64,000 nucleotides of DNA, from NCBI RefSeq assembly GCF_000214375.1, contig NC_015578.1, forward strand, positions 3,658,001 through 3,722,000, given 5' to 3'. Shown piece by piece: positions 41,935-50,285 of this stretch. The translations under genes were made by a program, and so were the position numbers. Source of the stretch: Treponema primitia ZAS-2. Its GTDB lineage: Bacteria; Spirochaetota; Spirochaetia; Treponematales; Breznakiellaceae. Every line of letters starts with the position of its first letter. Within the stretch, counting starts at the first letter, position 1. The notes under the pieces are model-generated. The model made no database searches. It was not told the origin of the DNA and saw nothing but the letters and a program-made list of their open reading frames with translations.

Positions 41935-42125
41935 ATACCATGATTGAAACCGGGGTTATTGTTGCTGTTATAGCCTTGGCAGCAGTTTTTGTGATTTTAC
42001 GGGTAGTGAAAACTTTTCGGAGTAGGCGGCCTTCCTGCTGTTCCGGGGATGGGGGGAAGGCTGTAAAAAAGGACGCTTGTCCGCATTGCGCGGGGAACTC
42101 CGTTGCAAGTAGCGCGGGGGAATAG
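41931..42125 (+). CDS. FeoB-associated Cys-rich membrane protein
   Basis: 64-residue protein with one membrane helix (about residues 5-23: VIVAVIALAAVFVILRVV) and a cytoplasmic tail with cysteines (RRPSCCSGDGG, DACPHC). Small proteins of this kind follow feoB in many bacteria and are thought to support Fe2+ uptake. It starts at GTG 41931, which overlaps the feoB stop (GTGA) behind TTAGGAGG. The last 12 residues (CAGNSVASSAGE) are encoded by a short-form palindromic element that also supplies the approach to the stop codon. Confidence 0.82.
   Translation: MNTMIETGVIVAVIALAAVFVILRVVKTFRSRRPSCCSGDGGKAVKKDACPHCAGNSVASSAGE
42088..42115 (-). repeat. palindromic coding element, copy 2 (short form) in the Cys-rich Feo gene
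   Basis: Reverse orientation: GCGCTACTTGCAACG followed by GAGTTCCCCGCGC on the minus strand, without the internal hairpin. Translated antisense to the element as CAGNSVASSAG, the same frame as copies 4, 5 and 6. Confidence 0.85.
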
Positions 42126-42287
42126 TGGCGAACTTTTTACGCCGTATATCTGTTCAGTACCTGGGGCTGATAAAGGCCTGCATAACCATCATTTCTTCAT
42201 CCATATAGTGTTTGTCTATACAAAACTCCTAAATTTCAACAAATTTCCCGGCGTTTAAAACAATTGTTTTCAGCCAATCAATGTGGA

Positions 42288-43397
42288 TTATCGTTTTCTT
42301 TGCAATATTTTAACAAACTCAATAAAACTAATTTCTTGATTAGCCAATTGGTTCAAATACTGTTCATTCCCTGAAATAAAGGCTTTGATCTGTTTCAATT
42401 CATCATCACTTAAATTGATTTCAATATCCTTTACCAATATTCGGGGATGTTCTTCAATGCTCATGGAAACCATTTTTGTACGATCTATTTTATCATCAGT
42501 ATTGGACTTAAATTTTAGTCGTTTATACTTTCCGATATTTTCCCATGCACCAATATCGTCCACTAATAGCTCTACCGGCAATCCGCTTTCCTCTTTAGAC
42601 AAGCGGCTCATATATTCCATCCGTATATTTTCAGCAATATTCTCATCTTCCGTTTGTAGCCCATTGTCCCAATAATCACCTTTACCAATGTTTTCAATAA
42701 AATGCTGATGATCGGTTTTTACTTCAACCCAAATCTCATTTATCCTCAATATATCAAACCATGAAAAAATATGACAATCCAACAATTGATGTATACCATA
42801 CCCTATATAATACTCGTCAAATTGACCGCTAAAGTACTCGCCATTCCAGTTGGTATCATCTTTCAAAAATCTTAAATATTCCGGGCCAAATCTACCATCA
42901 ATAATATCATCGGTCCATAAATATTCCGGTAGCGAGGAATACAGTACCCAGTAAATACCTTCTCCCCGCTCCGTTAATTCTCCGGTCTTATTGTCAATTT
43001 CAAGAATAAATGGCGATAACTTTATCCGAATGTTAAAATCATCCAAAAAACTATCATTTGAATTTAGTTTTTTGGTTAATTTATCATACAGTATTGCTGC
43101 TTCATCATATGCTTTCTTAAATCCGCTAATAATTTTATCGTTCAATTCAAGAAAATGCCTTTTGTTCTTTTCAGTCCAGGAAAAATGTCTATCAAGCTTT
43201 ATACGTCTTTCTAACAATATTTTTTCCAATAAGCCGGTTTCACCCTTGTTGTAATATGGATGTAGCAATTTATGATATTTACAAGCCATATCTTCAAGGT
43301 CGGTGACAGAACACATATCACGGAAATATAGACTTTTTTCTTCATAGGTTTGATTTAGCAGATTATTAAAAAAATCCCTATCATATATTTCACTCAT
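42288..43397 (-). CDS. uncharacterised protein, last gene of WYL-macro operon
   Basis: 369 residues, no signal or membrane segment. It is rich in acidic and aromatic residues. The C-terminal 60 residues are helical (LSDDELKQIKAFISGNEQYLN). A middle segment (GYGIHQLLDCHIFSWFDILRINEIWVEVK, in pieces IHQLLDCHIFSW and EIWVEVKTDHQHF) recalls proteins annotated only as hypothetical in accessory regions. I do not recognise a domain. Its ATG follows the NUDIX stop with no gap, so they are translated together. AT-rich like the whole island. The 162 bp between it and the Feo genes hold nothing that I can identify. Confidence 0.75.
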   Translation of the reverse strand: MSEIYDRDFFNNLLNQTYEEKSLYFRDMCSVTDLEDMACKYHKLLHPYYNKGETGLLEKILLERRIKLDRHFSWTEKNKRHFLELNDKIISGFKKAYDEAAILYDKLTKKLNSNDSFLDDFNIRIKLSPFILEIDNKTGELTERGEGIYWVLYSSLPEYLWTDDIIDGRFGPEYLRFLKDDTNWNGEYFSGQFDEYYIGYGIHQLLDCHIFSWFDILRINEIWVEVKTDHQHFIENIGKGDYWDNGLQTEDENIAENIRMEYMSRLSKEESGLPVELLVDDIGAWENIGKYKRLKFKSNTDDKIDRTKMVSMSIEEHPRILVKDIEINLSDDELKQIKAFISGNEQYLNQLANQEISFIEFVKILQRKR

Positions 43398-43871
43398 TCA
43401 TTTATTTACCTTACCATACTTATTTACATGAAACTTTCTAACAGCCTTCATCACGCCAAAATGAAGCGGCAAATCTTTTAGTTTGTCAAAAGTTACCCAT
43501 TTAAATTGTGAAAATTCATCAAAAGGGGTCGGGTTAATTCGTTTACCAATTTTGACCAGATATGTTTTCCAACGGAAGAACCAGAGGGCATTTATTGAGA
43601 CCACACCCGTTAAGGTATTGCCCAATTCTGACAGGATAAAACCCGTTTCTTCTTTAAATTCACGGACTGCTCCATCGTAAAAAGACTCGCCTTTTTCAAC
43701 TTTTCCGCCAGGAAACGACCATTTGCCTTTGCCGGGATTTCTTGTCCGTTTTCCAAGAAATACTGATACATTGTTAATTTCATCAACATGAAAAAGAGAA
43801 ATACCGGCGCCTTTATAACCACGAAGAAATTTTAATATACGATATAAAAACGTATGCTTGTATTTAGGCAT
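43398..43871 (-). CDS. NUDIX hydrolase
   Basis: 157-residue pyrophosphohydrolase. The Nudix box is complete: G56, E62, R70, E71, E74, E75, G77 in GGKVEKGESFYD and GAVREFKEETGF, fitting Gx5Ex7REUxEExGU. The fold begins with GAGISLFHVDEINNVSVFLGK (two pieces GAGISLFHVD, VSVFLGK). Nudix enzymes of this size act on NDP-sugars, ADP-ribose, oxidised nucleotides or capped RNA. Next to a macro-domain gene ADP-ribose chemistry is attractive but unproven. It is 87 bp behind the GIY-YIG gene and directly abuts the next gene. Confidence 0.88.
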   Translation of the reverse strand: MPKYKHTFLYRILKFLRGYKGAGISLFHVDEINNVSVFLGKRTRNPGKGKWSFPGGKVEKGESFYDGAVREFKEETGFILSELGNTLTGVVSINALWFFRWKTYLVKIGKRINPTPFDEFSQFKWVTFDKLKDLPLHFGVMKAVRKFHVNKYGKVNK

Positions 43872-43958
43872 TAGTGCGTCTCCTTTTACAGTAAGAAAAA
43901 TCTAAGTATAAGTACTACCCATCACGAAAATATTGTTCAAAAACATCCCTAGCCTCTT

Positions 43959-44798
43959 TTATTGCAATTCTTTCATTGTTTTACCATTGTTGTTTTTCCA
44001 CACATCTTGACCATTTACAGTTGAACCCAAAATAATGGATGCTGGCTGACTAGGACTACTGAAAATTGTGTTCTCTGTAAATTTATATTGGTCGTTTTCA
44101 AATACTAAAATACCGGCATCAATTAATTTTTCTCGATTCTTTTTGTATATAAATGAAGCTGTTACATCCTTACATACAGTAGAATCCTTTAGGACAATAT
44201 AATGATTATTTTCAATAACCATTCTTGCATAAATTCCTTTCGTTTTATTGTCAATGATAAAAGTATTAGTTTCCAGAATTATCTGTGCAGTAGTCGGTGA
44301 TAGACATAAAAACCCACATAATGGTAAAACCATTTTTAGTTGTCTGATGAATTCATCGACAATACTTTCATCGGCAAGTGATAAAGTTGAGAGCGTTGGT
44401 TTTGTCGCATTAAATATCTTAGAGTTTTTTGCCGAGTCAGATAACTGATAAAGCTTTGACTCCATGTTTTTTATATGCGCTTTTGTGAGCTCACCATCTT
44501 TAGTCGAAACAACAACAATGCATTCCTTAAATTCCAGCTTATCAGTTTTTAGATGTTGATTTAGTCTTTCCCGTAAAATTTCTGCCTCACCGATATACAC
44601 ACTATCAGAAAAATTGACATCATCACTATCATAACGTAATATATAAACGCCTGGATTTTCCAATTCTTTTCTTTCAAGCCATTCTGTAATACAGGCAATG
44701 GGCGAATATAACACCACCATTGACGAGCCACCAATGTCAATAATCTTTGGGCTATTTTCCGTATCATCCATTTGAAAGATTGTCACTTTTTTAGCCAT
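43959..44798 (-). CDS. GIY-YIG nuclease-domain protein with C-terminal DUF4357
   Basis: 279 residues. N-terminal GIY-YIG domain: GVYILRYD (residues 50-57), VYIGEAEILRERLNQH (67-82) with the catalytic arginine, and a likely catalytic Glu in NMESKLY. The C-terminal segment SSPSQPASIILGSTVNGQDV then KNNNGKTMKEL matches DUF4357, which is often fused to GIY-YIG or restriction-like proteins. It likely cleaves DNA or acts as a regulated nuclease. A strong AAGGAGG precedes ATG 44798, 12 bp after the upstream gene. Activity and target are unknown. Confidence 0.82.
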   Translation of the reverse strand: MAKKVTIFQMDDTENSPKIIDIGGSSMVVLYSPIACITEWLERKELENPGVYILRYDSDDVNFSDSVYIGEAEILRERLNQHLKTDKLEFKECIVVVSTKDGELTKAHIKNMESKLYQLSDSAKNSKIFNATKPTLSTLSLADESIVDEFIRQLKMVLPLCGFLCLSPTTAQIILETNTFIIDNKTKGIYARMVIENNHYIVLKDSTVCKDVTASFIYKKNREKLIDAGILVFENDQYKFTENTIFSSPSQPASIILGSTVNGQDVWKNNNGKTMKELQ

Positions 44799-44810
44799 TT
44801 CAATTCCTCC

Positions 44811-45653
44811 TTAATCCAGTACCCATCCGGCTTTTACCATTTCATGAACATCAGAATAATATTCCACATTCTCATCTTTGTCAACAACGGTATAAACACG
44901 GTTCAACGCATTAACCAGAGTAATATGCCCGTAAGTCCCATCATTGCGTTTCAGCATGACTCTACTCCTGGTCTCTAAGTCAACACCAAAAACAAGGTCG
45001 GGCAAATCATTTAATGTCCTTTTGATGACTTCATCACTCCACGGCCAGATTTCTTTTGGCTTGGGTGGCGGCTCTTTCAAATTCTCGTAGGAAGCTTCAA
45101 GATCACCGGAATTCACCTTGATATATATTCCAATCATATTATCAAAGGTGGTAAGAATTTCCTCATAGTCAATGTCGTTTAATTTGACAGCCTTTCCAAT
45201 GAAAATCGCTTCTACACCATCAGACGTTTTATTATTGATTTTCTGCACCTGGGTAATATCTACTATACTTCGATTTACTTCACGCCACATCGTATAATCA
45301 GAAAACAAATCAGGTGATTTATCATATAGCTTGTTAAAACTTTTATAACATTTTTTTAATTTAGGATCGTCTCTACGGAATGCATACATCCCTTTGTTTT
45401 GCAAAGGAAAAGATAAGCCGTACCAAAGTCTATCGGTACTATCAAGGGAAAGGCTAAACATAAAATCACGATGGCCTCCAAAAAGCAGTACCCAATTTCC
45501 CCACCATTGGAGAGTATCTTCGCTAATTAAAAAAAGGCGCTGAATTGCTTTTTTCCCCTGTAGTCCCATCTTGTACCGTATTACTTGAATCTCTCCAATG
45601 CGGTGAGTTTTTGCCTTTTCGTTCAGGATTTCACCTATTTGCGTAATCTTCAT
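44811..45653 (-). CDS. uncharacterised protein coupled to the macro-domain gene
   Basis: 280 residues, soluble. N-terminal part: IQVIRYKMGLQGKKAIQRLFLI followed by an aromatic-rich block (TLQWWGNWVLLFGGHRDFMFSL; both quoted in part: KKAIQRLFLI, WWGNWVLLFGGHRDF). A proline-rich linker (KEPPPKPKEIWPW) separates a small C-terminal domain that ends VHEMVKAGWVLD. I do not recognise a family. ATG 45653 has AAGGAGG and starts 10 bp after the macro-gene stop, so the two are made together; an open frame to 45731 would overlap that gene. It may be the effector or sensor of the module. Confidence 0.78.
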   Translation of the reverse strand: MKITQIGEILNEKAKTHRIGEIQVIRYKMGLQGKKAIQRLFLISEDTLQWWGNWVLLFGGHRDFMFSLSLDSTDRLWYGLSFPLQNKGMYAFRRDDPKLKKCYKSFNKLYDKSPDLFSDYTMWREVNRSIVDITQVQKINNKTSDGVEAIFIGKAVKLNDIDYEEILTTFDNMIGIYIKVNSGDLEASYENLKEPPPKPKEIWPWSDEVIKRTLNDLPDLVFGVDLETRSRVMLKRNDGTYGHITLVNALNRVYTVVDKDENVEYYSDVHEMVKAGWVLD

Positions 45654-45663
45654 CTTTTCCTCC

Positions 45664-46242
45664 TTATAAAATAGTATCTGCCTCTGCGAGATTGCGCGGA
45701 AACAAGGGAATCCTTCGTATAACGGAATCATACGCTTTCTTCATTTGAGTTGCACAGGACATTGGCGATATCAATCCGGTTAATGTTCCCAACCCAGGAC
45801 ACAAAACTTTTTTTATCGTATTCTCATTGTCTTTATTAAACTTGTTAATTTCTATCAATGCAGCACGAAAAGCCAAATATGCATTTATTGTTTTAGATAC
45901 ATCTTCGGGCAATCTCATCGTGGGAGCAGATATTAAATATTTAACATCTTTATTTTTAGTTTTAATCACCAATGCACTTCCAACAGGAAGTTCACCGTAA
46001 TAATCTTTTTGGATAGTCTTTTGTAATTTTTTCTGTAAATCCCATCCGAAGTAATGGCTGTACACCAAATCAATACCACCATCCATAAAACCAAAAGAGT
46101 TAGCCGGACTGACTATAGCATCTGCTTTTGCGTCAAATATATTTCCACAAGATACCTCAACATCTGAATACCCATTAAACACAGTAGCCCAGGCGTCTAC
46201 TATTTCTTTAGATAAATCCCTCAATAAAATTTTGACATTCAT
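45664..46242 (-). CDS. macro-domain protein
   Basis: 192-residue stand-alone macro domain, a binder or hydrolase of ADP-ribose groups. The ligand-binding segment is DAIVSPANSFGFMDGGIDLV (residues 41-60), where the conserved Asn of NAAN-type motifs is Asn48, and the phosphate loop is VLCPGLGTLTGLIS near residue 140. This SPANSFG variety is common in phage- and defence-associated macro proteins. ATG 46242 has TTAGGAGG upstream; the frame to 46272 lacks one. It follows the WYL regulator after 115 bp and is coupled to the unknown protein behind it. Confidence 0.88.
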   Translation of the reverse strand: MNVKILLRDLSKEIVDAWATVFNGYSDVEVSCGNIFDAKADAIVSPANSFGFMDGGIDLVYSHYFGWDLQKKLQKTIQKDYYGELPVGSALVIKTKNKDVKYLISAPTMRLPEDVSKTINAYLAFRAALIEINKFNKDNENTIKKVLCPGLGTLTGLISPMSCATQMKKAYDSVIRRIPLFPRNLAEADTIL

Positions 46243-46357
46243 TAATGAAATCCTCCTAAGAATTCGCAACATCGGTTTCTTTTTAAGACAAAAACCTATT
46301 TATCAGAACAATATATCTTTCAATAGCGCCTTACTTTTATTTTTCAAACTCTAATTT

Positions 46358-47389
46358 CTAAACCTTTTTTGCCAAAAGTGGCGAACGTTTACTATTTCCT
46401 TTCTGATAAAATGTTTGCAGCTGTTCTATTTCAAACCTCATTTTATCAACCAATTCCGGGGGACTTAAGACTTTAACCAGATGTCCCAGTGACAATACCC
46501 ACCGCTGAATTTCCTGAAACTCAGTTGATCTAAAGCTAACTTGTACCGTGTTATCATCAAGGGCTTTCACTGTCTGTTTGGGATGAAACGTGGCTTCACT
46601 TGCAAAAGACGTAGCATCTTTCTGAAACAACAATTCAAAAAGATACATCTTATTATCAGCAGGATGGACATCCGCAGAATTTTTTATATGATCCTGAATA
46701 TTGAAATTGACTGGAAGTTCAAAATAAGTACCTGTACCAAGCACTTTTTTGAACTTCTTTACAGAAAAAATACCCGATTTCCTATCATCGTTGCGATCAA
46801 GTGCAAGCAGGTAATAAATATGGTTCTGATAGAAAATATGTACAGGTTCAAGAGTTAGTGTAGAATATTTTCTATTTTCGGCAATCCAACATTGGGCTTT
46901 AATAACCTCTTTTTTAATAATGGCTGAATTTATTTCAGTAATAATATCATATTCGTATGAAATTCCAGGGTTAAAAAAATCACTGCCATCAAAATTGTTG
47001 ACTGGTAAATCCTTATCATATTTGTCCGGGACTACCGCAAGCAGTTTCTGGAATATCTTTTTGAATTTTGCCTCATAAGAATCTTCATCTTCTTCACTGT
47101 AAAATCTGTAGTATTGTTTAATTATCTCAAGTTCGGCTTCTGTGAAAAGAATACTCTTAATAAAGAAATTGGGTTCCGTATAATAAAAGCCATTACGGTC
47201 ACGGTCGAATTTCAAAGGAGCCTTGTATACATCACGTAAATAATCAATATCCCGGTTGATGGTACGGATACTGACTTCTAACTCCTTTGCTAAACCAGGG
47301 CAAGTGGGGTAGGAACCTAAACGGATTTTCTCATCAATTTTGAGTACCCGGCTAATTTGTATTTTTTTTTCGTTTTCCCCACCTTTCAT
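46358..47389 (-). CDS. WYL-domain transcriptional regulator
   Basis: 343-residue DeoR-like HTH plus WYL protein (YafY/PafBC/CapW/BrxR type). The N-terminal winged helix has CPGLAKELEVSIRTINRDID. The WYL part is seen in LEPVHIFYQNHIYYLLALD and VKKFKKVLGTGTYFELP. The C-terminal WCX segment follows (VSFRSTEFQEIQRWVLSLGH). WYL repressors of this kind control CBASS, BREX and other anti-phage loci and may sense nucleic acid or nucleotide ligands. ATG 47389 has GAGGAGG; the frame is open to 47434 within its own operator region. First gene of the minus-strand island operon. Confidence 0.88.
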   Translation of the reverse strand: MKGGENEKKIQISRVLKIDEKIRLGSYPTCPGLAKELEVSIRTINRDIDYLRDVYKAPLKFDRDRNGFYYTEPNFFIKSILFTEAELEIIKQYYRFYSEEDEDSYEAKFKKIFQKLLAVVPDKYDKDLPVNNFDGSDFFNPGISYEYDIITEINSAIIKKEVIKAQCWIAENRKYSTLTLEPVHIFYQNHIYYLLALDRNDDRKSGIFSVKKFKKVLGTGTYFELPVNFNIQDHIKNSADVHPADNKMYLFELLFQKDATSFASEATFHPKQTVKALDDNTVQVSFRSTEFQEIQRWVLSLGHLVKVLSPPELVDKMRFEIEQLQTFYQKGNSKRSPLLAKKV

Positions 47390-47416
47390 TTGGCAATCCT
47401 CCTCTTTATAGTTGAA

Positions 47417-47503
47417 AATATAGCACAGCATCATGCCATATACTGTCAGGGTGAAAAAAATTTAAAAAGGCAAAATAAATTATTGCCATGACAGTATTTG
47501 GCA
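47417..47503 (-). promoter_or_regulatory. promoter and paired operator of the WYL regulator
   Basis: An extended -10 box TGCTATATT (minus strand, 47425-47417) lies 28 bp before ATG 47389. TGCCATATACTGTCA (47434-47448) and TGACAGTATTTGGCA (47489-47503) are inverted copies of one 15-bp sequence with one mismatch, separated by 40 bp; the first covers the -35 position. A further GGCAA/TTGCC dyad lies between. This is the architecture of an autoregulated promoter with DNA looping or cooperative binding. Confidence 0.6.
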
Positions 47504-47664
47504 TAGTACTTAGAGTATATTGAGTATGTATGTTATACAAGAGGAATAAGGTAGTGGGTTAAAATCGCAAAAAGTGAGTCATTATGACACATTTTTTAAT
47601 AATGGCATTATTTTAGTCCAGAGTAATACGAGAATCCACCTGAAAAAATAAAAGGAGGTTGATC

Positions 47665-47811
47665 TTGGACGATGGTATAGGACCTGACATATCGATTTTA
47701 TATAAACAGGCGAGTAGCTCCAACAGTCAGAGCGGGACTCTTATAAGGTCACGGTTGATGGTGCAAATCCATCCTCGCCTAAACTTTTTAGGTAGTATCA
47801 GGGTTAAATAA
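47665..47811 (+). CDS. small ORF overlapping the tRNA-like gene
   Basis: A 48-codon frame beginning at TTG 47665 (MDDGIGPDISILYK...) with a near-perfect AGGAGG six bases upstream. It runs without stop through the whole tRNA-like sequence. The second half of the peptide is simply the translation of that structure, so coding value is doubtful. The strong ribosome binding site is real and could serve ribosome loading or leader regulation ahead of the 47845 gene. Confidence 0.3.
   Translation: MDDGIGPDISILYKQASSSNSQSGTLIRSRLMVQIHPRLNFLGSIRVK
47708..47781 (+). tRNA. tRNA-like RNA, putative anticodon UAU, non-canonical loops
   Basis: A complete cloverleaf can be drawn: acceptor AGGCGAG/CTCGCCT (7 bp), U8, D-stem GCTC/GAGC, anticodon arm GGACT-CTTATAA-GGTCA (four pairs) with anticodon UAU behind U33, five-base variable region and T-stem GATGG/CCATC. 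The D-loop CAACAGTCA lacks the GG pair and the T-loop is TGCAAAT rather than TTCRANY, so normal elbow contacts would be weak. No CCA is encoded. It lies in the 5' leader of the 47845 gene. It may be a decoy, cryptic or regulatory tRNA rather than a translational one. Confidence 0.55.
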
Positions 47812-47844
47812 AATTGAAAGCACAATTAAACCAGGTGAGGACGA

Positions 47845-48693
47845 ATGATAATGTATGTACAAGAATACCTTGATGATATTTCAGCGCAGAATATTTCTAA
47901 ATACCTGCAATTATCAAATGAAAATGTGCTTGAAAATAATATAGCGTATTTCATGAGCTTTATTAAGAGAAATCATATCTGCACACAATATGTATGCACA
48001 ACAACACGTGAAAAAGCATTGACATTTCTAAATAAATTGACAGACTATTTTAAGATAGAGTTTATCGATATTGATGAACTCTATAATGAAATAAAATGCA
48101 AAGCCACAATATTTATTCAGAGATCGTCCGAGTGGAACATAAAACCCATTACCTTGATCAGAAAAGGCACTGATCAATCAACCTTAAAATGCTATACCGC
48201 AAATACAATTTATACAAATTCATGGGGCTATAAATCAGAACAATCAGTTGCCAATATAGTTGTGAACAATGAAAGTGTTATTTGGATTAGTACTGAACAT
48301 GAAATGCCCCAATATTTTATCTACAAGGATGGTATATTTTTTTGTGTAAAATACCGGCATAAGGAAATTAATATAAAAAGAAATCTTGTTTATACTTTTA
48401 GAGAAATGGGCAACATGGATAATTCAAAACCCGATGATATACTAAATAATTATGACAAAATATCAATTAGTCCTATTGAAACTACTATTAATTTATCAGG
48501 CTATTTCTTCAAAGGCTTTTTTTATAAAGGGTTGTTATTTGACCGATACTGGAAAAGTGATTTATCGATGATAAAAAACATAGAATTTCTGGGAGATTTT
48601 ATAAAGGTTGAAATAGAAAATTTAACCTATCCACATAGTAATTATGTTTTATTGGATATTGATAATTGTAAAATTATTAACAAAATGTCATAA
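47845..48693 (+). CDS. uncharacterised island protein downstream of the tRNA-like gene
   Basis: 282 residues, soluble, AT-rich codon use. Predicted alpha/beta with many aromatic residues (YRHKEINIKRNLVYTFREMG in the middle, GYFFKGFFYKGLLFDRYWKSD after it). I do not recognise a family. GGTGAGGA precedes ATG 47845 (an ATG at 47851 is an alternative). It is divergent from the WYL operon, and the 455-bp spacer holds the paired operator, the tRNA-like gene and the short ORF. Its position suggests joint control with the minus-strand genes. Confidence 0.75.
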   Translation: MIMYVQEYLDDISAQNISKYLQLSNENVLENNIAYFMSFIKRNHICTQYVCTTTREKALTFLNKLTDYFKIEFIDIDELYNEIKCKATIFIQRSSEWNIKPITLIRKGTDQSTLKCYTANTIYTNSWGYKSEQSVANIVVNNESVIWISTEHEMPQYFIYKDGIFFCVKYRHKEINIKRNLVYTFREMGNMDNSKPDDILNNYDKISISPIETTINLSGYFFKGFFYKGLLFDRYWKSDLSMIKNIEFLGDFIKVEIENLTYPHSNYVLLDIDNCKIINKMS

Positions 48694-48704
48694 TATAGCC
48701 TATA

Positions 48705-50108
48705 CTATTTGTAAGGATTATACATATCGTCAAAATCCTTTAATTTAGGCAGCTCTTTTATGAGCATTTCGGGATTTGCTATTATATCATTACTGGTAAC
48801 ATCTAAATATTCAAGCTTTTTAAGGTTAGTAATCCAACTGGGAATTTCTGTAATCCAGGTGCTATGAAGATTGAGGATTTTCAATTTTGTTAAATTCCCT
48901 ATAAAATCAGGTAATGTTTTAAGTTTATTATGACTTATATCCAGCTCTGTTAAATCCTTTAGTTCGCCAATAAAATCAGGAATCCTGCCAAAAGAACTGA
49001 GACTGACTTTCCTTAACGTTTTAAGATTTTTCATTGACACTGGAAAACAAAAGTCGGGGGTAATGCTAGTGTAAATAGTTAAACATTTAAGAGATTTAAA
49101 ATTACCAAAATAATCAGGCAAGCTGGTTAATCGCGTTTCTGCAATAAAAAAATCCTTTAATGATAAAAGGTTCCCAAATGATTCCGGTAGAAAAGAAAAC
49201 CATGAACCCGGCCCTATTTTTTCTTCCAGTACGGGATGGTTATGTCTTTCCCAAAGCGTGAATAATTCGAGAGAACAAAGTTCGCCAAATGTCTCCGGTA
49301 AAGTTCTTAGCTTGTTTTCCGATAGCCTGATTTCTTTTAATTTTTTAAGACCACCAATTGAATCCGGTAATTCCGTTAATTCGTTACAACTTAGGTCTAA
49401 TAAGGTCAACTCGGGAAAATGACCGATCCATTTTGGCAATTGGATAAGGTTATTGCAGGTTAAATCAAGTTTATTTATCCAAGGCACGCCAGCTAATTCT
49501 TCCGGCAATTCGTTGATATAGAGAAATGACAAATCCAAATTTTTATAGTGCTTTTTTTTGCACCGATCTATTCGATGTAAAAATTCCTTTCGATTAAGTT
49601 CATTCTGTTTTTCAACAAGGGCAGGGAGATGTTTTATGTCATAACCACGGGTCTCTATTCGTTTAAGTTTAGGTAATTCAAGTATACTCTGCGGGACTTC
49701 TTTTAAGTCAACTATACTGATATCCAATACTTCCAGCGTGGTAAGTTTGCTGATAAAAGATGGAACCCTTTTAACGCCGGTGTTATCAAGAACCAACTTT
49801 TTTAAATGCGTTAAATTGGTCAAACTGTCGGGCAATTTTCGAATCTTCTGATTTGTACTGAGGTCAAGAATCTTTAAACTTTCCAGTTCACCAATCCATT
49901 CAGGCAAAACTCTAATATCCGTACATATTACAGAAAGGCTTGTAAGCCATGTTAATTGCCTGATTTCTTCGGGGAATAGATTAAGATATAAATCATAGCC
50001 AATTTCGAGGGATTTTTCATGTTGTTCTCGACATTTCTCGATTTTCTGAAGAGCTTCAAGTATTGCGTCTTTTTGCTTAATCAAAGCCTTTTCATTTTTC
50101 TTCTTCAT
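48705..50108 (-). CDS. leucine-rich-repeat protein
   Basis: 467 residues: a charged N-terminal helical segment (about 1-40), then about fifteen LRR units of bacterial type with the consensus LxxLDLSxNxLxxLPxxIGxL (examples LTELDISHNKLKTLPDFIG and LKEIRLSENKLRTLPETFG). No signal peptide, so cytoplasmic. LRR proteins of this type mediate protein binding; in bacteria some belong to conflict or surveillance systems, many are of unknown role. GGAGG precedes ATG 50108. It converges on the 47845 gene with an 11-bp gap, at the edge of the AT-rich island. Confidence 0.88.
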   Translation of the reverse strand: MKKKNEKALIKQKDAILEALQKIEKCREQHEKSLEIGYDLYLNLFPEEIRQLTWLTSLSVICTDIRVLPEWIGELESLKILDLSTNQKIRKLPDSLTNLTHLKKLVLDNTGVKRVPSFISKLTTLEVLDISIVDLKEVPQSILELPKLKRIETRGYDIKHLPALVEKQNELNRKEFLHRIDRCKKKHYKNLDLSFLYINELPEELAGVPWINKLDLTCNNLIQLPKWIGHFPELTLLDLSCNELTELPDSIGGLKKLKEIRLSENKLRTLPETFGELCSLELFTLWERHNHPVLEEKIGPGSWFSFLPESFGNLLSLKDFFIAETRLTSLPDYFGNFKSLKCLTIYTSITPDFCFPVSMKNLKTLRKVSLSSFGRIPDFIGELKDLTELDISHNKLKTLPDFIGNLTKLKILNLHSTWITEIPSWITNLKKLEYLDVTSNDIIANPEMLIKELPKLKDFDDMYNPYK

Positions 50109-50285
50109 TATGTACCTCCACGTTGGAGATTTGTACCCTCCATCAGGTCTTTACAATAAAATACACCACATAATATGACAAATAATGTCATGGCTTGATC
50201 TTTTTGATAAGAAAAATAATTATCTCTCCCCACACTCCAAACTTAGGACGAATAAATAAGCCGCTTTGGTAAAAAAGCAGATCGT

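What the first reader, a model, noticed from the sequence alone, without database searches (positions are those of the whole stretch)
47665..47811. Non-canonical tRNA with UAU anticodon overlapped by a short ORF with strong ribosome binding site
All cloverleaf stems form, but the D-loop has no GG and the T-loop is TGCAAAT, so canonical elbow contacts are missing. The anticodon would read AUA, normally served by a modified CAU tRNA in bacteria. An AGGAGG plus TTG starts a 48-codon frame running through the structure. It lies between a WYL-controlled operon and an unknown gene, so it may be a decoy or sensor RNA for anticodon nucleases or repair, or a phage-derived tRNA.
Basis: partly seen in the sequence, partly recalled or inferred. 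Interest (0 to 1): 0.72.

Follow-up and report, generated by a model that had tools for sequence, protein, structure and literature searches.

The report
Phage-type isoleucine tRNA with swapped elbow
The odd structure is a real accessory isoleucine tRNA on a small foreign DNA island; its apparently broken elbow is a matched pair of changes (A18 with G55 in place of G18 with U55) that I found again and again in phage tRNAs, so it looks like a working phage-style tRNA rather than a decoy.

Summary
Window 47708-47781 (+) is a tRNA with anticodon UAU (ARAGORN; Rfam tRNA 52.3 bits). Stems form except a G-A mismatch at 27-43, the D-loop lacks GG, and the T-loop is TGCAAAT. The elbow is not missing: G19-C56 is kept, and G18-U55 is replaced by A18 and G55. 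In phage contigs this swap is a rule. Of 157 unique G55 (TGC) tRNAs, all have AG in the D-loop; 1249 of 1271 TTC tRNAs have GG. Selecting on A18 instead, 52 of 57 have G55. Both types occur side by side in 75 contigs. No such UAU tRNA turned up in about 85,000 bacterial species genomes searched by one exact pattern. Among 393 genomes of the host's phylum only the window and one relative have it, the relative at the head of a tRNA array beside RNA-repair genes. Cloverleaf stems covary strongly. The host has TilS and three CAU tRNAs, so this tRNA is accessory. Best reading: a phage-type tRNA-Ile(UAU), probably functional, on an AT-rich island. A decoy role is unsupported; the overlapping ORF shows no sign of conservation. 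The new part is the covarying A18/G55 phage elbow, not found described in the papers I could search.

The parts
47708..47781 (+). tRNA-Ile(UAU), no encoded CCA; A18 G19 in the D-loop, T-loop T54 G55 C56 A57 A58 A59 T60, discriminator A73
   Evidence: ARAGORN; Rfam 52.3 bits; alignment A1 and covariation
47726..47727 (+). A18 G19 (canonical G18 G19)
   Evidence: sequence; alignment (A18 and G19 invariant in 19 of 19 relatives)
47762..47768 (+). T-loop TGCAAAT with G55 in place of U55
   Evidence: sequence
47653..47811 (+). AGGAGG (47653-47658) plus a TTG-started open frame through the tRNA (first TTG 47659, better spaced TTG 47665); most likely not the selected feature
47433..47504 (.). 19-nt inverted repeat with arms 47433-47451 and 47486-47504, upstream of the WYL start; candidate operator between the WYL operon and the tRNA
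   Evidence: fold z -4.1; 89% complementary; operator role inferred
46358..47389 (-). HTH-WYL-WCX regulator; likely true start is the ATG at 47389 behind AGGAGG, not 47434
   Evidence: Pfam WCX 4.4e-11, WYL 3.5e-4 (below cut-off); start choice from the sequence
45664..46272 (-). macro-domain (ADP-ribose processing) protein, like phage 'Appr-1-p processing' proteins
   Evidence: Pfam 3.8e-10; PHROG 2613 202 bits; up to 46% identity in phages
44811..45731 (-). 306-aa protein of unknown family
   Evidence: no Pfam, NCBIfam or PADLOC match
43959..44798 (-). GIY-YIG-like plus DUF4357 protein, PADLOC candidate PDC-S14
   Evidence: DUF4357 3e-21 (GIY-YIG 0.0027, below cut-off); PDC-S14 4e-72
43398..43871 (-). 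NUDIX hydrolase
   Evidence: Pfam 6.1e-19
47845..48693 (+). 282-aa AT-rich orphan protein downstream of the tRNA, 53 AUA codons per 1000
   Evidence: no relatives; codon counts
42100..50280 (.). AT-rich island (29-38% GC against 50-58% in the flanks) carrying the tRNA; limits approximate
   Evidence: similarity of same-genus relatives to the FeoB flank ends at 42046-42097; Ffh flank is conserved from 53025

Best explanation
It is a genuine accessory tRNA-Ile(UAU) of the phage type, brought in with an AT-rich island. Its elbow uses A18 with G55 in place of G18 with pseudouridine 55, next to the normal G19-C56 pair, so the D- and T-loops should still dock and the L-shape form. The tRNA keeps positions used for isoleucine recognition in E. 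coli (A73, C4-G69, U12-A23, A37, A38, anticodon NAU; identity set from memory). It should therefore be charged by the host IleRS after CCA addition and read AUA codons with UAU, without the lysidine modification that the host's own AUA-reading CAU tRNA needs. The likely benefit is extra AUA decoding for AT-rich mobile genes, or a spare tRNA that host-tRNA-damaging systems or modification limits do not touch. Shown: the cloverleaf, the anticodon, the A18/G55 swap, its recurrence and covariation in phage tRNAs, the island context, and the host's own TilS and CAU tRNAs. Inferred: expression, aminoacylation, AUA reading, the three-dimensional A18-G55 contact, the phage source of this copy, and the selective benefit.
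For: tRNA calls at 52.3 bits. T-loop and D-loop tabulation on phage tRNAs: 157/157 unique TGC (G55) tRNAs have AG in the D-loop core and 156 lack GG, while 1249/1271 TTC tRNAs have GG. In 75 contigs holding both types, 102/102 G55 tRNAs have AG and 547/551 U55 tRNAs have GG. Reciprocal selection on A18 gives G55 in 52 of 57 cloverleaf-like hits. Cloverleaf covariation among 19 UAU/G55 tRNAs: 97.4% of cells paired, 117 double-change cells against 31.9 in shuffles. One exact UAU + TGCAAAT pattern gave 9 true tRNAs in 17 viral hits and none in 51 hits from 84,980 bacterial and archaeal species genomes. Among 393 genomes of the phylum only the window and G312 carry a true one. In the G312 array only the tRNA-Ile(UAU) has A18/G55, the other 14 have GG and TTC (one of them, tRNA-Glu, reads CGGC). 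Island GC 29-38% against 50-58%; AUA share of Ile codons 0.33 in the island and 0.24 in four flanking genes. The host has TilS, TruB and three CAU tRNAs.
Against: No expression or charging data. The G27-A43 mismatch and C14 could be early decay. AUA enrichment in the island is modest and follows from its low GC. There are no phage structural or integrase genes on the island, so a phage source is inferred from tRNA type and gene families, not from a prophage. The homologous phage tRNAs are not phylogenetically independent, so the Fisher value is not a true probability.
Confidence: 0.78

Rival explanations
1. A spare tRNA in a WYL-regulated damage response: the regulator upstream, with the inverted repeat as operator, silences both its macro/NUDIX/GIY-YIG operon and the tRNA until RNA damage or ADP-ribose signals appear, and the tRNA then replaces damaged host tRNA-Ile.
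For: Divergent arrangement with a 19-nt inverted repeat between the WYL gene and the tRNA. The only other carrier found in the phylum, G312, has this tRNA type at the head of a 13-tRNA array followed by RlaP, two WYL/WCX proteins, RtcB and DUF2828/vWA. A second relative, G115, has RlaP beside a five-tRNA array. Precedent: the Anabaena trn operon is silent and induced by translational stress together with rtcB (PMC10272220), though by an RHH repressor. WYL regulators are predicted to sense RNA ends or ADP-ribose in such systems (PMC9503650).
Against: No RtcB, RlaP or tRNA array in the window island. The WYL proteins of G312 and the window are only distantly alike and the window repeat motif is absent from the G312 locus. 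The tRNA starts about 200 bp from the repeat and no convincing promoter was found.
Confidence: 0.22
2. A decoy or sensor for anticodon nucleases, not used in translation.
For: Defence-like neighbours (PDC-S14, macro, WYL). Phage tRNAs can blunt tRNA-targeting defences (PMC10264068, PMC11555353, found).
Against: A decoy needs no isoleucine identity set nor a matched elbow. The class covers many anticodons and amino acids in phages. No anticodon nuclease was recognised in the island.
Confidence: 0.06
3. A decaying tRNA gene, left by a mobile element and no longer functional.
For: G27-A43 mismatch and C14; lower score than most host tRNAs.
Against: All other stem pairs intact, A18/G55 and G19/C56 both kept, identity positions kept; several host tRNAs score as low.
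Confidence: 0.13
4. The 48-codon ORF is the functional element (a leader peptide or small protein) and the tRNA overlaps it by chance.
For: Strong AAAGGAGGT with good spacing; SD + start + at least 40 codons has a 0.25% chance in this intergenic region.
Against: The frame is open in 7 of 42 related tRNAs; no comparable Shine-Dalgarno upstream of them; no PHROG match; the tRNA itself shows stem covariation.
Confidence: 0.05

Closest known systems
Phage-encoded tRNA-Ile(UAU) and phage tRNA sets
   Same: Anticodon, cloverleaf, presence outside the host core tRNA set; many phage contigs carry it
   Different: Most phage tRNAs have G18/U55 (0 TGC among 593 tRNAs in loci not selected for it); this one belongs to the A18/G55 minority
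Canonical bacterial tRNA (Rfam RF00005)
   Same: Stems, lengths, G19-C56, U33, A37, A58, T54
   Different: A18 and G55 in place of G18 and U55; C14 in place of A14; TruB cannot make pseudouridine at 55
Host tRNA-Ile2(CAU) with lysidine
   Same: Serves AUA
   Different: Here UAU is encoded directly and needs no TilS; the host has TilS
Anabaena trn operon with TrcR and rtcB (PMC10272220)
   Same: Accessory tRNAs tied to a repressor and to RNA repair; resembles the G312 locus
   Different: TrcR is an RHH protein, not WYL; 26 tRNAs; the window has a single tRNA and no RtcB was seen beside it
Reviewed naturally non-canonical tRNAs (PMC7609411: tRNA-Pyl, mitochondrial)
   Same: Depart from the G18/G19 and T-psi-C motifs
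   Different: Those lose or remodel the loops; here one pair is swapped as a unit. The text of that review has no mention of G55, A18 or phage

Membership tests
tRNA (RF00005) | covariance-model score above the family cut-off | tested here: met
   52.3 bits against 29
tRNA (RF00005) | stem covariation among relatives | tested here: met
tRNA (canonical elbow) | G18-U55 and G19-C56 elbow pairs | tested here: not met
   G19-C56 kept; G18-U55 replaced by A18/G55 as a unit. The motif is usual but is not required for membership of the tRNA family by the model
tRNA-Ile(UAU) | anticodon UAU with U33, A37 and isoleucine identity positions (E. coli set, from memory) | tested here: met
   anticodon; identity positions read from the sequence; charging untested
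Phage A18/G55 elbow class (defined here) | A18 G19 in the D-loop with G55 C56 in the T-loop | tested here: met
Prophage | integrase or structural genes beside the tRNA | tested here: not met
   no such gene among island ORFs in Pfam, PHROGs or NCBIfam; macro and GIY-YIG proteins have phage relatives
Anticodon-nuclease decoy | linked nuclease that cleaves it, no use in translation | not testable with these tools
   no known anticodon nuclease recognised in the island
WYL-regulated tRNA / RNA-repair locus | RtcB or RlaP with WYL and tRNA genes in one locus | tested here: not met
   met in G312; in the window only WYL and the tRNA are present, and RlaP has no match in the host genome
Y RNA (YrlA) | match to a Y-RNA family | tested here: inconclusive
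   only the tRNA family was reported as a credible match, but overlapping families of one clan are suppressed; no Ro60 gene on the island

The most novel reading that the evidence does not exclude
Phages and mobile elements maintain a separate tRNA elbow, A18 with G55, as a functional variant that avoids host systems which read G18 or pseudouridine 55 (modification enzymes, tRNA quality control or tRNA-cleaving defences), and this island carries one such protected tRNA under a WYL damage-responsive switch.
Probability: 0.13. Interest if true: 0.82.

Novelty: new variant of a known kind. Interest (0 to 1): 0.56.

Why it matters
[quoted passage not shown] A recurrent class of phage tRNAs that swaps both partners together, for many amino acids and beside normal tRNAs in the same phage, gives a natural test of what the elbow pair and pseudouridine 55 are needed for, and of whether phage tRNAs are shaped to escape host enzymes. 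It also gives annotators a rule for accepting tRNAs that look broken.

Tried and rejected
Broken elbow or pseudo-tRNA: set aside because A18/G55 covary. ORF as the selected element: frame not kept in relatives, Shine-Dalgarno not shared. Homologues of the downstream 282-aa protein: none in plasmids, phages, viral contigs or 296 genomes of the phylum. DNA homologues of the locus in 40 relatives: none. Macro-protein loci elsewhere in the phylum: one hit (G224, 35% identity) next to a ParB-like gene, with no WYL gene among the ORFs read. Macro relatives in viral contigs by pattern: none, although tblastn finds phage macro proteins. The first anticodon-arm pattern was too short and mostly chance. 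Literature on A18-G55: nothing relevant in ten searches (one search was an input error); one enzyme study made a G18U-U55G double mutant and found that TrmK still rejects it (PMC9801127). Work on artificial elbow variants by Steinberg and colleagues is known to me from memory only and was not found in the held library.

Full report
What is there. ARAGORN finds one tRNA in the window, tRNA-Ile with anticodon TAT, at 47708-47781 on the plus strand, and Rfam's tRNA model matches the same stretch over its full length at 52.3 bits against a cut-off of 29. The host genome has 50 tRNA matches in all; ours is among the lower scores but in line with several others. The stems are intact except for a G27-A43 mismatch. 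Folding alone is only somewhat better than shuffles (z -1.67), so the evidence rests on the model match and on relatives.

The elbow is swapped, not lost. Aligned to the tRNA model the D-loop reads A18 G19 where G18 G19 is normal, and the T-loop reads T54 G55 C56 where T54 T55 C56 is normal. An exact pattern for UAU anticodon plus TGCAAAT T-loop, with the D-loop left free, gave 17 hits in viral contigs, nine of which are complete tRNAs, and 51 hits in 84,980 bacterial and archaeal species genomes, none of which is a tRNA. All nine phage tRNAs have AG in place of GG. Wider scans and ARAGORN on all loci gave 1561 unique tRNAs. In a strict count on the D-loop core, all 157 TGC tRNAs have AG and 156 of them lack GG, whereas 1249 of 1271 TTC tRNAs have GG. 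In 75 contigs that hold both kinds, 102 of 102 G55 tRNAs have AG and 547 of 551 U55 tRNAs have GG. T-loops with U56 mostly have GA in the D-loop, suggesting that G19-C56 can likewise become A19-U56.

Reciprocal test. Searching instead for the A18 D-loop TAGCTCAATAGT-AGAGC with the T-loop left free gave 57 unique cloverleaf-like sequences, 52 of them with G55 (TGC 21, AGC 19, GGC 12), while other tRNAs in the same loci are mostly TTC with GG. The link therefore holds in both directions. These sequences are related, so the counts are not independent events; the within-contig contrast and the spread over many amino acids argue against a single inherited family.

How rare. In phage loci not chosen for it, none of 593 tRNAs has TGC. 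One named example is tRNA-Met of Campylobacter phage F336, the only one of six tRNAs in that cluster with A18/G55. In 393 genomes of the host's phylum the UAU type occurs in the window and in one other genome, G312; a pattern covering the other NAU anticodons added none.

Stem covariation. Nineteen UAU/G55 tRNAs, including the window and G312, give 97.4% standard pairs and 117 double-change cells against 31.9 in shuffles and at most 29 in slid controls. The ORF test goes the other way: its frame is open in 7 of 42 relatives and no comparable Shine-Dalgarno with a start lies upstream of them. The Shine-Dalgarno and start are nevertheless unlikely by chance in this intergenic region (0.25%), and I leave that unexplained.

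Setting. The tRNA lies on an AT-rich stretch of about 8 kb (29-38% GC) between normal host genes at 50-58% GC. Same-genus relatives match the FeoB side up to 42046-42097 and the Ffh side from 53025; whether they lack the island at this exact site could not be shown, because FeoB and Ffh lie on different contigs in their draft genomes. Island genes are a 369-aa unknown, NUDIX, a DUF4357 protein matching PADLOC candidate PDC-S14, a 306-aa unknown, a macro protein with phage relatives, a WYL regulator, the tRNA, a 282-aa orphan and an LRR protein. The WYL gene most likely starts at 47389 behind AGGAGG, which puts a 19-nt inverted repeat (47433-47451 with 47486-47504) in its promoter region, between it and the tRNA. 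An operator role is inference.

The G312 locus. In G312 the same tRNA type heads an array of 13 tRNAs followed by RlaP, two WYL/WCX proteins, RtcB, two more tRNAs and a DUF2828/vWA protein; only the tRNA-Ile(UAU) has A18/G55. A second genome has RlaP beside five tRNAs. This resembles the silent, stress-induced tRNA operon of Anabaena that shares a repressor with rtcB (PMC10272220), though that repressor is of another family. It makes a damage-response role for such tRNAs plausible, but the island has no RtcB or RlaP, and RlaP has no match anywhere in the host genome.

Function. The host carries TilS, TruB and three CAU tRNAs, one of which looks like the initiator, so AUA should already be served by a lysidine tRNA. 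The UAU tRNA is thus accessory. The island uses AUA more (0.33 of Ile codons against 0.24 in four flanking genes), as expected from its composition. The best-supported reading is an active accessory tRNA of phage type; expression, charging and benefit are not shown.

Limits. Host identity was not given; the relatives and the 4,059,867-bp single contig fit my memory of Treponema primitia ZAS-2, which I did not verify, so 'phylum' above means the phylum of the window's genome as the tool defines it. The bacterial collection was searched with a single exact pattern, and records of the window's own genome may be left out there, so the statement about bacteria holds only for that pattern. The library of papers is partial.

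Noticed in passing
L595:14803-19819 and L596:87-3478 (G312:C15:24000-60000): Array of 13 tRNAs followed by RlaP, two WYL/WCX proteins, RtcB, tRNA-Thr, tRNA-Pro and a DUF2828/vWA protein: a tRNA array physically joined to an RNA-repair locus in a relative of the host.
   Followed up: partly
L631:9990-10395 (G115:C19): Five-tRNA array Glu-Ser-His-Cys-Trp (minus strand) near an RlaP gene, with the same gene order as part of the G312 array.
   Followed up: no
L503, L504, L573:2501-2575 and many CAU loci: Many A18/G55 CAU tRNAs look like initiators (position 1-72 mismatch, A11-U24): phage-encoded initiator-like tRNAs appear common in this class.
   Followed up: no
loci, for example L365, L507: Phage tRNAs with T-loop TTT mostly have GA in the D-loop, suggesting A19-U56 replacing G19-C56; others have AGCGTTA or GGCAGAA loops, so the 54-58 pair may vary too.
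   Followed up: partly
L642, L663, L681 (pattern TAGCTCAATAGT): Family of phage tRNA-like sequences with stem CCCC-TATTCCAA-GGGG, an apparently 8-nt anticodon loop, and TGCAAYT T-loops.
   Followed up: no
window 47433-47504: Strong inverted repeat upstream of the WYL gene (arms 19 nt, 89% complementary).
   Followed up: partly
window 47653-47667: AAAAGGAGGTTGATC is close to the complement of the bacterial 16S rRNA 3' end, an unusually long Shine-Dalgarno in front of a frame with no visible conservation.
   Followed up: partly
window 48705-50108: LRR protein at the island edge with its best NCBIfam scores to XopAE/XopAC/XopL-type models, all far below their cut-offs, probably a generic LRR resemblance.
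   Followed up: no
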